Source of the DNA: Bolinopsis microptera
Taxonomy: Eukaryota > Ctenophora > Tentaculata > Lobata > Bolinopsidae
Assembly: GCF_026151205.1 (NCBI RefSeq)
Contig: NC_087075.1
Span: 5,200,858 to 5,264,857, forward strand
Length of the DNA: 64,000 nt
Direction: 5' to 3'
The stretch's first letter is position 1. Each line of letters opens with the position of its first letter. The translations under genes and the position numbers were made by a program. Shown here one piece after another: positions 45,323 to 63,518 of the stretch. The notes below the pieces were generated by a model. The model saw nothing but the letters and a program-made list of their open reading frames with translations. It made no database searches and was not told the DNA's origin.

Positions 45323-45380
45323 ATGAGGCGACTATTTTCTGTCACTCTTTTGGGATTGATTCATGTGCTCTGGGCCAGTC
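45323..45380 (+). CDS. Lectin exon 1, signal peptide
   Basis: MRRLFSVTLLGLIHVLWAS: basic n-region, hydrophobic core and small residues at the end, a clear secretion signal. Donor C|GTAAGT, phase 1. The ATG is the first in this open stretch after AAGTTGTTCGAG. Confidence 0.85.
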
Positions 45381-63300: not shown

Positions 63301-63518
63301 TAAGTACCTTCTTGTATCCCCGTTCATACTATTTGTAAGTACCTTCTTGCATCCCCGTTCATACCATTTGTAAGTACCTTCTTGCAAAACTATTTGATTT
63401 ATTGTTATAATTATTATCAAATTGCTTTAACTACAGGGAGAACGGTGTACGGTGAGCCAGCAGTTGGTGATGATGCGATTAGTTACGCTGAGTGTAACCA
63501 GGGGGATGTGGTCATGAG
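45323..63518 (+). CDS. Secreted galectin / F-type-lectin multidomain protein (3' partial)
   Basis: Exons: 45323-45380, 45619-45736, 46017-46127, 53859-54001, 54232-54494, 54709-54963, 55102-55347, 55475-55664, 55784-55914, 56077-56163, 56461-56605, 56830-57254 (long form) or -57269 (short form with stop), 60959-61098, 61330-62280, 62449-62564, 63437-63518, continuing beyond the window. Every junction is GT-AG and every phase fits. Order: signal peptide (1-19), galectin 1 (about 20-145), galectin 2 (146-316), F-type lectins FTL1 (317-461), FTL2 (462-582), FTL3 (583-724), FTL4 (about 735-865), Cys-rich region, EGF-like. FTL1-3 keep the fucose motif HX26RXDX4R exactly. It should be an extracellular lectin binding galactosides and fucose; a role in immunity, adhesion or self-recognition is inference. 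Confidence 0.88.
45442..45570. mobile_element. Short MITE of the pogo-like family
   Basis: TACCTTATCCGACTTTATTT ... CGGCCGATAAGGTA, 129 bases, in lectin intron 1. Its termini match those of the 41.7-kb and 51.4-kb elements. No coding capacity. Confidence 0.75.
45619..45736 (+). CDS. Lectin exon 2, galectin 1 N-terminal part
   Basis: Acceptor ACTTTCAG, donor AG|GTACC. Reads QSHIFDAEEGVEYKLNKQLE then AGDVIRAWGVYKDDSTSKF, the F-strand side of a galectin fold that repeats in galectin 2 as VGDVVSAWGIYATGSSKF. Confidence 0.87.
45823..45982. mobile_element. Second, more decayed MITE of the same family
   Basis: Starts TAACCTTAGCGGACTTTATT and ends AAATAAGGTCCATGATAAGG. 160 bases, in lectin intron 2, immediately upstream of the exon 3 acceptor. 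Confidence 0.55.
46017..46127 (+). CDS. Lectin exon 3, galectin 1 sugar-binding core
   Basis: Reads SSSLYHLHVDFRPYNNVVVL then NNFNNGWKTEI(R). It keeps the galectin pattern H.x.R ... V.N ... W..E.R, with Asp where most galectins have Asn (H-V-D-F-R). Phase 1 is completed to Ser by exon 2, and phase 2 goes out across the 7.7-kb intron 3. Confidence 0.88.
46431..48648 (+). repeat. Left arm of the giant palindrome
   Basis: 2.2 kb, high identity to the inverse of the right arm, including the CACGTG at about 47226/50800 and AGGTGGCGCCTCTATTCAGC near 46480/53520. Open frames here are short and their counterparts in the other arm are broken. Confidence 0.9.
48649..49335. other. Loop of the giant palindrome
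   Basis: AT-rich single-copy spacer between the arms. No gene or repeat recognised. Confidence 0.6.
51383..53258 (-). mobile_element. pogo-like DNA transposon, copy 2, with nested LINE fragment
   Basis: TIRs CCTTATCGGACCTTATTTG flanked by TA on both sides. The other arm of the palindrome gives the empty site (AAC-TA-TAAAA), so TA is the target. The minus strand carries the C-terminal half of a DDE_1 transposase in broken frames: VYNDVFKGHLTEKVNEIMAL, VPANMTNLF and later QISAGKAPRDVKVNLKLSKI, then PLHAEWLLKVYTEMQD. The N-terminal DNA-binding and catalytic parts are gone. Confidence 0.82.
51540..52190 (-). pseudogene. LINE (non-LTR) reverse-transcriptase C-terminal fragment
   Basis: Minus-strand frames read KRKIKLYDSLVVSVLLYN, VDVVQRKHLKRILHIYWPSS, then EKARWTMLGHVLRSDNDTPA, GRVGRHRTNLYDIIVKKDLF and LARDRILWRSLF. 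This is the thumb/C-terminal pattern of non-LTR retrotransposons (..R.rWlGHvLR ... A.DR..WR..), ending near an A-rich tail (AAAAAAGATGAAAAAAAA). 5'-truncated, with frameshifts. Nested inside the pogo-like element. Confidence 0.75.
53578..53858. other. Lectin intron 3, 3' remainder
   Basis: AT-rich with a TAGTAGTAGT microsatellite near 53590-53612, ending at the exon 4 acceptor. Confidence 0.5.
53859..54001 (+). CDS. Lectin exon 4, galectin 1 C-terminal part
   Basis: Acceptor GGATTTAG, donor G|GTAAGT. Reads NTLFEVKIEVTDSEYKIYFN then GEQLSLTFPHAGRED. F.vkI.v....y.iy.NG is standard for galectins. It lies only 280 bases beyond the palindromic element in intron 3. Confidence 0.88.
54232..54494 (+). 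CDS. Lectin exon 5, end of galectin 1 and start of galectin 2
   Basis: Reads VVLHGGSNGFKWTSLQLPNG, a domain linker, then QPLAVGDVVSAWGIYATGSS and FMIHVDFRPPPSENK. The second galectin repeats the HVDFRP signature of the first. Phase 1 in, 0 out. Confidence 0.9.
54709..54963 (+). CDS. Lectin exon 6, galectin 2 C-terminal part
   Basis: Reads VVLNSKKQAGWETELRTALP then KSFKVDVKCLEGEFEIYHNG. V.LN...gWetELR completes the galectin sugar-binding motif. Donor CAA|GTTCGT is weak but phase 0 fits. Confidence 0.88.
55102..55347 (+). CDS. Lectin exon 7, F-type lectin 1 N-terminal part
   Basis: Reads MVSASQSSIGWNGDAGRGID then GYYWANSCTHSDGAKDNWWM and VVIHNRVDCCSVRINGAK. From the His of CTH to the Arg of NRVD are exactly 26 residues, followed by RVDCCSVR: the complete F-type lectin fucose motif HX26RXDX4R. 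The vicinal CC is typical. Confidence 0.93.
55475..55664 (+). CDS. Lectin exon 8, F-type lectin 1 C-terminal part
   Basis: Reads VYVGDVYCGEVAYEAGKVIY then PLTLCEVQVVGAPSDE. The LTLCEVqV ending closes each F-type lectin here. Phase 0 in, 1 out. Confidence 0.9.
55784..55914 (+). CDS. Lectin exon 9, F-type lectin 2 N-terminal part
   Basis: Reads WQSSEGWSGSPNRATDGRSN then GDYWDGSCTHSGSTDFNLWM. The donor ATG|GTGGAT is inferred because the next exon resumes VDLIDKYEVSRVVIHNRVDC, keeping the HX26R spacing. The intron starts with the same nine bases (GTGGATTTR) as the next exon. Confidence 0.82.
56077..56163 (+). CDS. Lectin exon 10, F-type lectin 2 fucose motif
   Basis: Reads VDLIDKYEVSRVVIHNRVDC then CAERIDGVQ. 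It completes HX26RVDCCAER with exon 9. Followed by a (CTTTCA)n tract within the intron. Confidence 0.88.
56169..56312. repeat. (CTTTCA)n hexamer array
   Basis: About 23 tandem hexamers starting a few bases after the exon 10 donor. It keeps frames open (Leu-Ser, Phe-His or Lys-Val repeats), but splice phase shows it is intronic. Confidence 0.95.
56461..56605 (+). CDS. Lectin exon 11, F-type lectin 2 C-terminal part
   Basis: Reads VFVNNNLCGTVEYMAGQNVY then ILTLCEVEVLG. Acceptor CCCTTCACCAG, donor CTTG|GTAGGT, phase 1 out. Confidence 0.9.
56830..57269 (+). CDS. Lectin exon 12, complete F-type lectin 3 (with optional stop)
   Basis: A whole F-type lectin in one exon: FINIAQSGVATQDSTGWEGV, SCSHNGDLADGWW, VIYNREDCCQDRI, TYLTLCEVQVWEF and TAA. 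His to Arg spacing is again 26. A donor lies at 57254 (GTACAG|GTTTGG, phase 0). Using it skips the stop and joins to 60959, giving LCEVQ|VLSDPNALSSDN. If unspliced the protein ends at 728 residues. Confidence 0.9.
57270..57608. other. Intron 12 / possible short-form 3' UTR
   Basis: AT-rich, no AATAAA before the 405-bp array. The first AATAAA is at 57683 inside the array. Confidence 0.5.
57609..60913. repeat. 405-bp tandem array, 8 full copies plus 65 bp
   Basis: Copies start at 57609, 58014, 58419, 58824, 59229, 59634, 60039, 60444 and (partial) 60849. They are almost identical; the only difference I noticed is CACCCC for CATCCC in the fourth (about 58998). Each unit holds an AATAAA, a 20-base internal duplication (CTTTCACTGAAGTCATCAG) and a coding-like stretch reading PPYSVSELEFYGLPDG, reminiscent of the end of a discoidin/F-type domain. 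405 is divisible by three. Confidence 0.97.
60959..61098 (+). CDS. Lectin exon 13, F-type lectin 4 N-terminal part
   Basis: Reads VLSDPNALSSDNLVNLAYLK then PTSQSTTGWGGVSSRAVDGK, aligning with the starts of FTL1-3. Donor GC|GTAAGT, phase 2. I place the acceptor at CCTCCATCAAG because phase 0 and the resulting CEVQVL junction match the other domain joints. The frame is also open further upstream into the last 405-bp copy, so an earlier start is possible. Confidence 0.72.
61189..61310. mobile_element. 122-bp MITE with AGATRTGGA ends
   Basis: Starts AGATATGGACTCTGGTAATC and ends TTTCACCTCCACATCT, inverted ends like those of the giant palindrome at 46431-53572. Sits in the intron between exons 13 and 14. 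It contains CACGTGAC and ACCAATCGG. No clear target duplication. Confidence 0.6.
61330..62280 (+). CDS. Lectin exon 14, F-type lectin 4 core plus Cys-rich region
   Basis: Starts GTCTHTAGAGWWKVDLGDKF, then VWIRNRVDCCSERLNGAEVF and LTLCEVKVYGDD. The His-Arg gap is 24, not 26; RVDCCSER is intact. An acidic linker follows, then two Cys-rich modules (RCPMGYVVTYCEAQTGRAGK ... GAVARAVCSQ; CPAGYEQILCNARSPWTGKL ... YASAVC) that loosely resemble the Cys-rich C-terminal repeats of proprotein convertases such as PCSK9. Then CDGYHCGESEECVMM, a very acidic segment and the first Cys of the EGF. Phase 2 in and out. Confidence 0.88.
62449..62564 (+). CDS. Lectin exon 15, EGF-like domain
   Basis: With the end of exon 14 it reads CDDNDRCGENGVCAPVGSDD then YECKCGEDYEFSVVTGSC, a six-cysteine EGF-like domain. 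Ends ACCATTT|GTAAGT. This boundary is the first copy of the 35-bp array. Confidence 0.88.
62543..63386. repeat. 35-bp tandem array of an exon/intron boundary, 24 copies
   Basis: Unit TGCATCCCCGTTCATACCAT followed by TTGTAAGTACCTTCT. The first copy contains the last 22 bases of exon 15 and its 5' splice site. GTAAGTACC recurs every 35 bases from 62565 to 63370, giving 24 identical candidate donors. Only a few substitutions occur (ATATCATTT, TTCAAACC, TTGTATCC). Confidence 0.97.
63437..63518 (+). CDS. Lectin exon 16
   Basis: Acceptor TTTAACTACAG. It reads (W)RTVYGEPAVGDDAISYAEC then NQGDVVM(R). Donor AG|GTAAAA, phase 2. Phase fits only if the first 35-bp donor, or one a multiple of three units later without an intervening stop, is used. 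No domain recognised; it continues beyond the window. Confidence 0.72.

What the first reader, a model, noticed from the sequence alone, without database searches (positions are those of the whole stretch)
45323..63518. Fusion of two galectins with four F-type lectins, a Cys-rich region and an EGF in one secreted protein
Sixteen exons with consistent phases give signal peptide-Gal-Gal-FTL x4-Cys-rich-EGF. Galectins normally lack signal peptides and bind galactosides; F-type lectins bind fucose. Both types are tandemly repeated in one secreted chain, with their sugar-binding residues intact. I do not know a described protein with this order.
Basis: partly seen in the sequence, partly recalled or inferred. 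Interest (0 to 1): 0.78.

Follow-up and report, generated by a model that had tools for sequence, protein, structure and literature searches.

The report
Giant secreted comb-jelly lectin mosaic
A comb-jelly gene encodes one large secreted protein that strings together two galactose-type sugar-binding domains and four fucose-type ones on a cysteine-rich stalk, a combination not found described in the papers searched and repeated in sister genes of the same genome.

Summary
The fusion is real and larger than reported. The window lies in a ctenophore genome, most probably Bolinopsis microptera. The gene model has 24 exons (all introns GT-AG) and 1,718 aa: signal peptide - 2 galectins - 4 F-type lectins - Cys-rich module - EGF - second Cys-rich module - EGFs - Ig - stop; no membrane segment is evident. 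A paralogue on another large contig keeps the exons in one frame (dN/dS 0.21 over 1,571 codons); a second aligns nearly end to end at 55%. In a third, one uninterrupted exon holds a galectin and the start of F-type lectin 1, so the fusion does not rest on predicted splicing. The fucose-site triad is kept in 16 of 16 F-type domains of four loci. The galectin sites are not fully intact: HxNxR reads HxDxR in both. No galectin/F-type-lectin protein turned up in the papers searched; galectin plus Ig (snail GREPs) and F-type lectin plus pentraxin or C-type lectin are known, so this is a new variant of secreted lectin mosaics. Most likely a multivalent glycan cross-linker in mucus, glue or defence; which is not shown.

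The parts
45323..45380 (+). exon 1: start codon and predicted signal peptide (MRRLFSVTLLGLIHVLWAS)
   Evidence: ATG and frame; C9 has the same exon at 95% identity; signal peptide judged by eye, no SignalP
45619..46127 (+). exons 2-3 (45619-45736, 46017-46127): galectin 1, first part, HVDFR...VVLN...W..E.R
46128..53846 (+). 7.7-kb intron inside galectin 1 holding a large inverted repeat
53847..54001 (+). exon 4: galectin 1, end
54232..54963 (+). exons 5-6 (54232-54494, 54709-54963): galectin 2
   Evidence: Pfam PF00337 E 2.6e-18; PDB hits are galectins but for one
55102..55664 (+). exons 7-8 (55102-55347, 55475-55664): F-type lectin domain 1, H-X26-RVDCCSVR
55784..56605 (+). exons 9-11 (55784-55914, 56077-56163, 56461-56605): F-type lectin domain 2, H-X26-RVDCCAER
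56830..57254 (+). exon 12: F-type lectin domain 3, H-X26-REDCCQDR; an intron present in C9, c13a and c13b is missing here
57255..60958 (+). intron with the apparent stop at 57267 and a 405-bp x8.2 tandem array (57609-60913)
   Evidence: array absent from C9
60959..61098 (+). exon 13: end of F-type domain 3 and start of F-type domain 4
   Evidence: same junction LTLCEVQ|VLSDPN in C9
61330..62280 (+). exon 14: rest of F-type domain 4 (H-X24-RVDCCSER) and the whole Cys-rich module 1 in one exon
   Evidence: Cys-rich module approx. 61688-62206
62449..62564 (+). exon 15: EGF-like domain 1
   Evidence: Pfam EGF weak, E 0.046, below cut-off; same exon in C9, c13a and c13b
63437..63518 (+). exon 16: start of Cys-rich module 2; the gene goes on for 8 exons beyond the window to C4:5269524

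Best explanation
A 24-exon ctenophore gene (16 exons in the window) encodes a secreted 1,718-aa lectin mosaic: signal peptide, two galectin domains, four F-type lectin domains, two related Cys-rich modules with an EGF between them, Ca-binding EGFs and a C-terminal Ig region. Shown: gene structure by prediction and comparison, domain homology, order, purifying selection, paralogue family. Inferred from family knowledge: the four F-type domains bind terminal fucose, probably with Ca2+. The galectins, with Asp for Asn in HxNxR, bind galactosides in altered fashion or have drifted. The Cys-rich/EGF/Ig part forms a disulphide- and Ca-stiffened stalk that may oligomerise. Working proposal: released from secretory cells, it cross-links fucosylated (and perhaps galactosylated) glycans and so holds together or attaches a secretion (mucus, or the glue of colloblasts/tentacles). 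The use of the secretion is the least certain step.
For: Frame and splice sites. C9 paralogue: 23 of 24 exons match without gaps at 91-99% DNA identity (exon 12 in two pieces, exon 14 in three; exon 23 has a gap), dN/dS 0.21. c13a aligns over 1,703 columns at 55%, c13b over 1,553 at 52%. One c13b exon of 191 codons without stop carries a galectin (Pfam PF00337 E 3.2e-11; 2.1e-26 with a local profile that leaves c13b out) and the start of F-type 1 (E 3.1e-9, profile without c13b); reversed control: no hit. One window exon carries most of F-type 4 and Cys-rich 1. F-type profile: 6 of 6 PDB hits are F-type lectins. Fucose triad in 16 of 16 domains. No 19-residue window scores above 1.43 Kyte-Doolittle after residue 30. 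Secretion use, a lead only: Mnemiopsis colloblast candidate genes are enriched for Ca-EGF and lectin terms among others (passages); EGF, galactose-binding lectin, discoidin and vWD domains recur in animal temporary adhesives (passages).
Against: No transcript, protein or binding data. The galectin site is changed here and further lost in c13b (RMAFR), so two-sugar binding is not assured. Three of four F-type domains here have H-X26-R, not the published H-X24-R; the full cation motif is clear in one of four. The von Willebrand D domain typical of adhesives is absent, and Babonis et al. found no significant Pfam overlap between colloblast candidates and known adhesives. The C9 copy has a frameshift near its C terminus. 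The signal peptide was judged by eye and is not the most hydrophobic 19-residue window of the protein. The gene end is predicted: my first model ran on into membrane-helix exons downstream.
Confidence: 0.55

Rival explanations
1. Soluble immune recognition protein: a humoral opsonin that agglutinates microbes through fucose and galactose glycans, like snail GREPs/FREPs.
For: F-type lectins and galectins are known self/non-self lectins (passages). Snail GREPs join galectin and Ig domains in plasma (passages). The genome holds many related lectin-module loci.
Against: No expression or challenge data. The M. leidyi immune-gene paper focused on TIR2, NACHT, SRCR and CTLD and did not treat this family in the passages seen. 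dN/dS 0.21 between C4 and C9 gives no sign of diversifying selection overall.
Confidence: 0.3
2. Structural matrix or mesoglea protein: glycan-binding domains anchor an EGF/Ig rod in extracellular matrix.
For: Ca-EGF and Ig modules and large size.
Against: Binding-site residues of the F-type domains are strictly kept, which points to active glycan recognition; no matrix-specific domain was found.
Confidence: 0.14
3. Two adjacent genes read as one (galectins plus three F-type domains ending at the stop at 57267; F-type 4, Cys-rich and EGF separate).
For: Exon 12 runs into an in-frame TAA at 57267 if its weak donor (CAG|GTTTGG) is not used; 3.7 kb with a tandem array follow.
Against: The C9 copy has the same donor and acceptor across a 424-bp intron and no array. 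c13a and c13b models continue F-type 3 into F-type 4 by nearby splice sites, and both align across the whole protein.
Confidence: 0.04

Closest known systems
F-type lectins (eel AAA, striped bass MsaFBP32, fucolectin-related protein, Sm-hPAF)
   Same: Each of the four domains; the profile hits only these in PDB (that Sm-hPAF is F-type is recalled); H/R-x-D/R triad kept; tandem repeats are common in the family
   Different: Frequent eukaryotic partners named in the review are C-type lectin, pentraxin, CCP, FA58C and transmembrane segments; galectin is not among them; loop spacing X26 in three domains
Tandem-repeat galectins
   Same: Two PF00337 domains in tandem, V-x-N...W..E.R kept
   Different: Signal peptide; HxDxR instead of HxNxR; joined to other lectins and a long Cys-rich/EGF/Ig tail
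GREPs (galectin-related VIgL proteins of Biomphalaria)
   Same: In plasma, galectin plus Ig domains in one chain (passages)
   Different: No F-type lectins mentioned; two Ig domains (IgSF1, IgSF2) and one galectin, whereas Ig lies at the C-terminal end here
Multidomain temporary adhesives (Sfp1, Mlig-ap, Nectin)
   Same: Secreted, EGF and/or discoidin-like and galactose-binding lectin modules (passages)
   Different: Their galactose-binding lectin is SUEL type; no vWD found here; no galectin or F-type fusion in the passages read
PCSK9 C-terminal Cys-rich domain
   Same: PCSK9_C1 is the only recurring Pfam match of the Cys-rich modules (3 of 9, best E 0.004); hhalign over 51 columns, P 4.5e-4, probability 33%
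   Different: Below the curated cut-off; a profile search of PDB does not find PCSK9; no subtilase domain found

Membership tests
F-type lectin | Sequence homology to the F-type lectin fold | tested here: met
   Profile of 8 domains (4 of this protein, 4 of c13a): 6 of 6 PDB hits at E<=1e-3 are F-type lectins, best 7.6e-48
F-type lectin | Fucose motif residues H ... R-x-D-x4-R/K | tested here: met
   4 of 4 domains here, 16 of 16 in four loci; motif from PMC5712786 passages
F-type lectin | Strict H-X24-R spacing | tested here: inconclusive
   X24 in F-type 4, X26 in F-type 1-3
F-type lectin | Cation motif h2DGx | tested here: inconclusive
   DG kept in 4 of 4 (GIDGN, ATDGR, AIDGS, AVDGK; protein, by eye); the full published motif clearly only in AIDGS
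F-type lectin | Fucose binding | not testable with these tools
   needs expressed protein
Galectin | PF00337 domain over the curated cut-off | tested here: met
   52.1 and 66.2 bits against 22.1
Galectin | Canonical site H-x-N-x-R / V-x-N / W-x-x-E-x-R (recalled) | tested here: not met
   N is D in both domains; the other seven residues kept (pairing with galectin-7)
Galectin | No classical signal peptide | tested here: not met
   hydrophobic start of exon 1 read by eye, start conserved in C9; SignalP not available
Galectin | Beta-galactoside binding | not testable with these tools
   needs binding assay
GREP / VIgL | N-terminal Ig domains with a galectin domain behind | tested here: not met
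   Ig region at residues ~1508-1715 behind all lectin domains
Multidomain temporary adhesive | EGF + von Willebrand D + SUEL lectin + discoidin combination | tested here: not met
   EGF and F5/8C-type found; no vWD and no SUEL in Pfam at E<=0.1
PCSK9 C-terminal domain | Match to PCSK9_C1-C3 profiles | tested here: inconclusive
   C1 in 3 of 9 modules, E 0.004-0.055, below cut-off; C2/C3 not listed; PDB profile search negative

The most novel reading that the evidence does not exclude
Ctenophores evolved their own class of giant secreted lectin mosaics in which galectin and F-type lectin domains are combined on Cys-rich/EGF/Ig stalks, expanded by duplication and N-terminal module swapping (WSC-like, tectonin). 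They would serve as the programmable glycan glue of ctenophore-specific secretions such as colloblast adhesive: a lectin-based adhesion system separate from that of other animals.
Probability: 0.25. Interest if true: 0.82.

Novelty: new variant of a known kind. Interest (0 to 1): 0.62.

Why it matters
Galectins and F-type lectins are two separate animal lectin families with different folds and sugars; joining both in tandem in one secreted chain would give a built-in bispecific binder with up to six sites. Finding it as a conserved multigene family in a ctenophore, an early animal branch, bears on how early animals built extracellular recognition and adhesion, and names concrete candidates to test for colloblast glue or for ctenophore humoral defence.

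Tried and rejected
Rejected: separate genes (stop at 57267), by the C9, c13a and c13b copies. Rejected: transmembrane receptor. My first gene model ran on into exons at 74-76 kb with a membrane helix. The last exon and its stop at window-scale 68667 are conserved in C9 (whose frame is shifted one exon earlier), c13b's model stops at the same place with 5 kb of sequence left, and colinear homology to C9 ends near 70.4-70.9 kb, so the helix is probably another gene; not proven. c13a's model also stops there, but near the end of the DNA I held. Rejected: a mobile origin for the C9-only intron of about 660 bp; it is a CATATTACTA-type minisatellite, so its scattered matches mean little. Corrected on re-check: the galectin E-value came from a profile that held the c13b domain itself; one search repeats it without. 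Weak, left open: PCSK9-like Cys-rich fold. Nothing useful: Rfam, NCBIfam, phmmer of the Cys-rich module against PDB. Organism: inferred; the printed scaffold number (346) differs from the 232 contigs held.
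Full report
Source. The window is G000:C4:5200858-5264857 of a 264.65-Mb genome in 232 contigs. A glutamate-receptor fragment of the same genome (L041) is closest in PDB to ML032222a, a Mnemiopsis leidyi gene number (194 bits; the next molecule has 108). A 2025 paper prints 265 Mb, 13 chromosomes and a largest chromosome of 26.2 Mb for Bolinopsis microptera (passages); contig C1 here is 26,206,493 bp. Against: the paper prints 346 scaffolds, here there are 232 contigs. I take the source to be B. microptera or a very close lobate ctenophore (inference).

The gene. With a home-made splice-aware scan, corrected by eye and by the paralogue, the gene has 24 exons, all 23 introns GT-AG, one frame, 1,718 aa and one stop. 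Eight more lie downstream (stop at C4:5269524). Pfam on the spliced protein gives 2 galectin stretches, 4 F5/8C-type stretches, EGF_CA stretches and an I-set Ig, these families over cut-off. The order is SP-Gal-Gal-FTLx4-Cys-rich 1-EGF-Cys-rich 2-EGFs-Ig. The two Cys-rich modules are related to each other (30-33% identity to the first sequence). The most hydrophobic 19-residue window after residue 30 scores 1.43 on the Kyte-Doolittle scale, so no membrane segment is evident; the signal peptide is by eye only.

Is it one gene? Four lines of evidence. (a) A paralogous region on C9 (992966-1011488) keeps 23 of 24 exons without gaps at 91-99% DNA identity, exon 12 in two and exon 14 in three pieces; larger aligned blocks that include introns run at about 82-91%. 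Over 1,571 aligned codons dS is 0.123, dN 0.026, dN/dS 0.21, and substitutions fall 40/42/127 on codon positions 1/2/3. All ten domain blocks with values have dN below dS, galectin 1 least clearly (0.021 against 0.027); the Ig block was not computed. Against: the C9 copy has a frameshift in exon 23, its Ig part. (b) c13a (C13:7555394-7582101) is predicted by the same scan as 1,882 aa and aligns with the window protein in one stretch of 1,703 columns at 55%. (c) c13b (C13:14379488-14357562, start not settled, one galectin found) aligns over 1,553 columns at 52%. A single 577-nt exon of it (C13:14378209-14378785), free of stops, holds a galectin (Pfam E 3.2e-11; E 2.1e-26 with a local profile without c13b) and the start of F-type lectin 1 (E 3.1e-9); reversed, no hit. 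That join needs no splicing. (d) In the window one exon (61330-62280) holds most of F-type lectin 4 and the whole of Cys-rich 1. The weak point, the in-frame stop at 57267 and the 405-bp array behind it, is resolved by C9, which uses the same donor and the same acceptor (LTLCEVQ|VLSDPN) across a 424-bp intron without the array.

Sugar sites. The F-type profile (8 domains) finds 6 PDB sequences at E<=1e-3, all F-type lectins (for Sm-hPAF recalled). The published fucose motif is H-X24-R-x-D-x4-R/K (passages); the triad is present in 16 of 16 domains of C4, C9, c13a and c13b, with X24 in the fourth domain and X26 in the first three of each; C4 and C9 are close copies and not independent. Galectin 2 against PDB: 57 sequences at E<=1e-3, named galectin, congerin (three of them reconstructed ancestors), beta-galactoside-binding lectin, Charcot-Leyden protein/eosinophil lysophospholipase (galectin-10, recalled), and one 'putative fiber protein'. 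The window's two galectins read HVDFR...V-x-N...W..E.R, Asp where canonical galectins have Asn (canon recalled; pairing with HFNPR of galectin-7). c13a has HVDFR and HISFR, c13b RMAFR. The F-type sites therefore look held by selection, the galectin sites less so.

Family. Galectin and F-type hits lie together at C4, C9, C13 (two loci), C1:12.02-12.03 Mb and C1:3.47-3.53 Mb. At C1:12.03 Mb, two F-type domains are followed by a Thr-rich linker, an LDL-A domain over cut-off and a B-lectin match under cut-off. c13a adds an N-terminal WSC-like domain (27.7 bits against a cut-off of 27.8), c13b a tectonin region (59.4 bits over two frames that I set end to end). On C1:3468342-3527902 the scan links 110 exons into 10,114 aa with 45 F-type hits (a few are pieces of one domain) and 4 galectin hits by local profiles, 0 in the reversed control; my scan has no sense of gene ends, so this may be several genes. 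The Cys-rich module gives 29 matches on nine contigs, C3, C4, C6, C7, C9, C10, C11, C12 and C13.

The Cys-rich module. No PDB match by phmmer at E<=10; the profile gives one hit, an eggshell membrane protein at E 0.018 over the last 45 positions, likely Cys pattern. PCSK9_C1 is the only Pfam family that recurs: 3 of 9 modules, best E 0.004, below cut-off; hhalign against human PCSK9 gives probability 33%. A PCSK9-like fold is a lead, not a finding. A fold prediction did not finish.

Literature. Searches: galectin/F-type lectin/ctenophore (25 of 73 listed), F-type lectin/galectin domain/domain architecture (3 listed), ctenophore/lectin/colloblast (30 of 107 listed), Mnemiopsis/galectin (8 listed), Gal-bind_lectin/F5_F8_type_C (0 papers), adhesive domains, GREP (4 listed), fucolectin/ctenophore. 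No listed title or start of abstract named a galectin/F-type fusion. I saw passages of PMC6278862, PMC11797021, PMC5712786 (and its section 13), PMC10057474, PMC12472103, PMC8878817, PMC9860276 and PMC5433772. The F-type review names C-type lectin, pentraxin, CCP, FA58C and transmembrane partners as frequent, not galectin. Subscription papers and bioRxiv were not searched.

Function. Shown: predicted structure, homology, conservation. Inferred: secretion, fucose binding, multivalency. I lean to a cross-linker in a secretion because binding sites are many and kept, the tail is Cys/EGF/Ig-rich, and Mnemiopsis colloblast candidates are enriched for Ca-EGF and lectin terms, while that paper found no significant overlap with known adhesives. 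Immune use is the main rival (snail GREPs). Expression data would decide.

Noticed in passing
C9:1001597-1001800 (L013:3598-3801): A 204-bp GT..AG insertion splits the C9 copy of window exon 14, with AGGTT at both junctions. The genome search scored 40 of 116 candidates: itself and 39 others of about 180-210 bp at 87-98% identity, on 12 of the contigs C1-C13 (none listed on C11) and on C37. Looks like an introner or a small mobile element used as an intron; c13a has no intron at this place. One search found one paper holding both 'introner' and 'ctenophore', not read; PMC9860276 names no ctenophore in its main text.
   Followed up: partly
window 62543-63386; C9 about 1002850-1007110; window-scale 64790-64930 (L009); C13:14369623-14376108: Minisatellites that span splice junctions and copy the splice site: a 35-bp unit x24 repeating the donor of exon 15, a unit of about 47 bp (by eye) repeating the donor of exon 17, and in c13b an array of 66-bp units (by eye) repeating the acceptor of an F-type domain exon.
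   Followed up: partly
window 46430-53573: The intron inside galectin 1 is a large palindrome: arms 46651-48322 and 49711-51382 (1,672 nt, 99%) plus three further arm pairs; a retroelement-like frame on the minus strand at 51569-52075 lies beside it (by eye). C9 has only a 400-bp intron there.
   Followed up: partly
window 57609-60913: 405-bp x8.2 tandem array, 99% alike, whose unit contains a frame (LRIILCEGRDPDV, VSELEFYG) that reminds by eye of F5/8C domain ends; absent from C9.
   Followed up: partly
C1:3468342-3527902, minus (L031-L036): Lectin mega-cluster: 45 F-type hits and 4 galectin hits by local profiles in one 60-kb run, with PAN-, B-lectin-, tectonin- and WSC-like stretches by eye; one giant gene of about 10,000 aa or several genes.
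   Followed up: partly
C4:1272941-1274778 minus; C7:5174228-5175745 minus; C3:13281152-13283170 minus: Long open frames (745, 619 and 738 aa) that hold tandem copies of single modules of the mosaic without introns: galectins (52-59% identity) and Cys-rich modules (54-60%); possible retro-copies.
   Followed up: no
window 56830-57254 against C9:997725-997895: C4 lacks an intron in F-type domain 3 that C9, c13a and c13b have, so it was probably lost here.
   Followed up: partly
window-scale 74235-75925 (L010): Exons with a transmembrane helix (GIVVFLIMVPPIYLC) downstream on the same strand; probably the next gene, an alternative membrane-bound end of this gene is not excluded.
   Followed up: partly
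C11:15591060 and 15598548 (L029, L030): Two neighbouring copies of the Cys-rich module, 83-86% identical, with Ig-like frames after them by eye and, in L029, a frame without a Pfam match before it: the stalk may be reused with other heads.
   Followed up: partly
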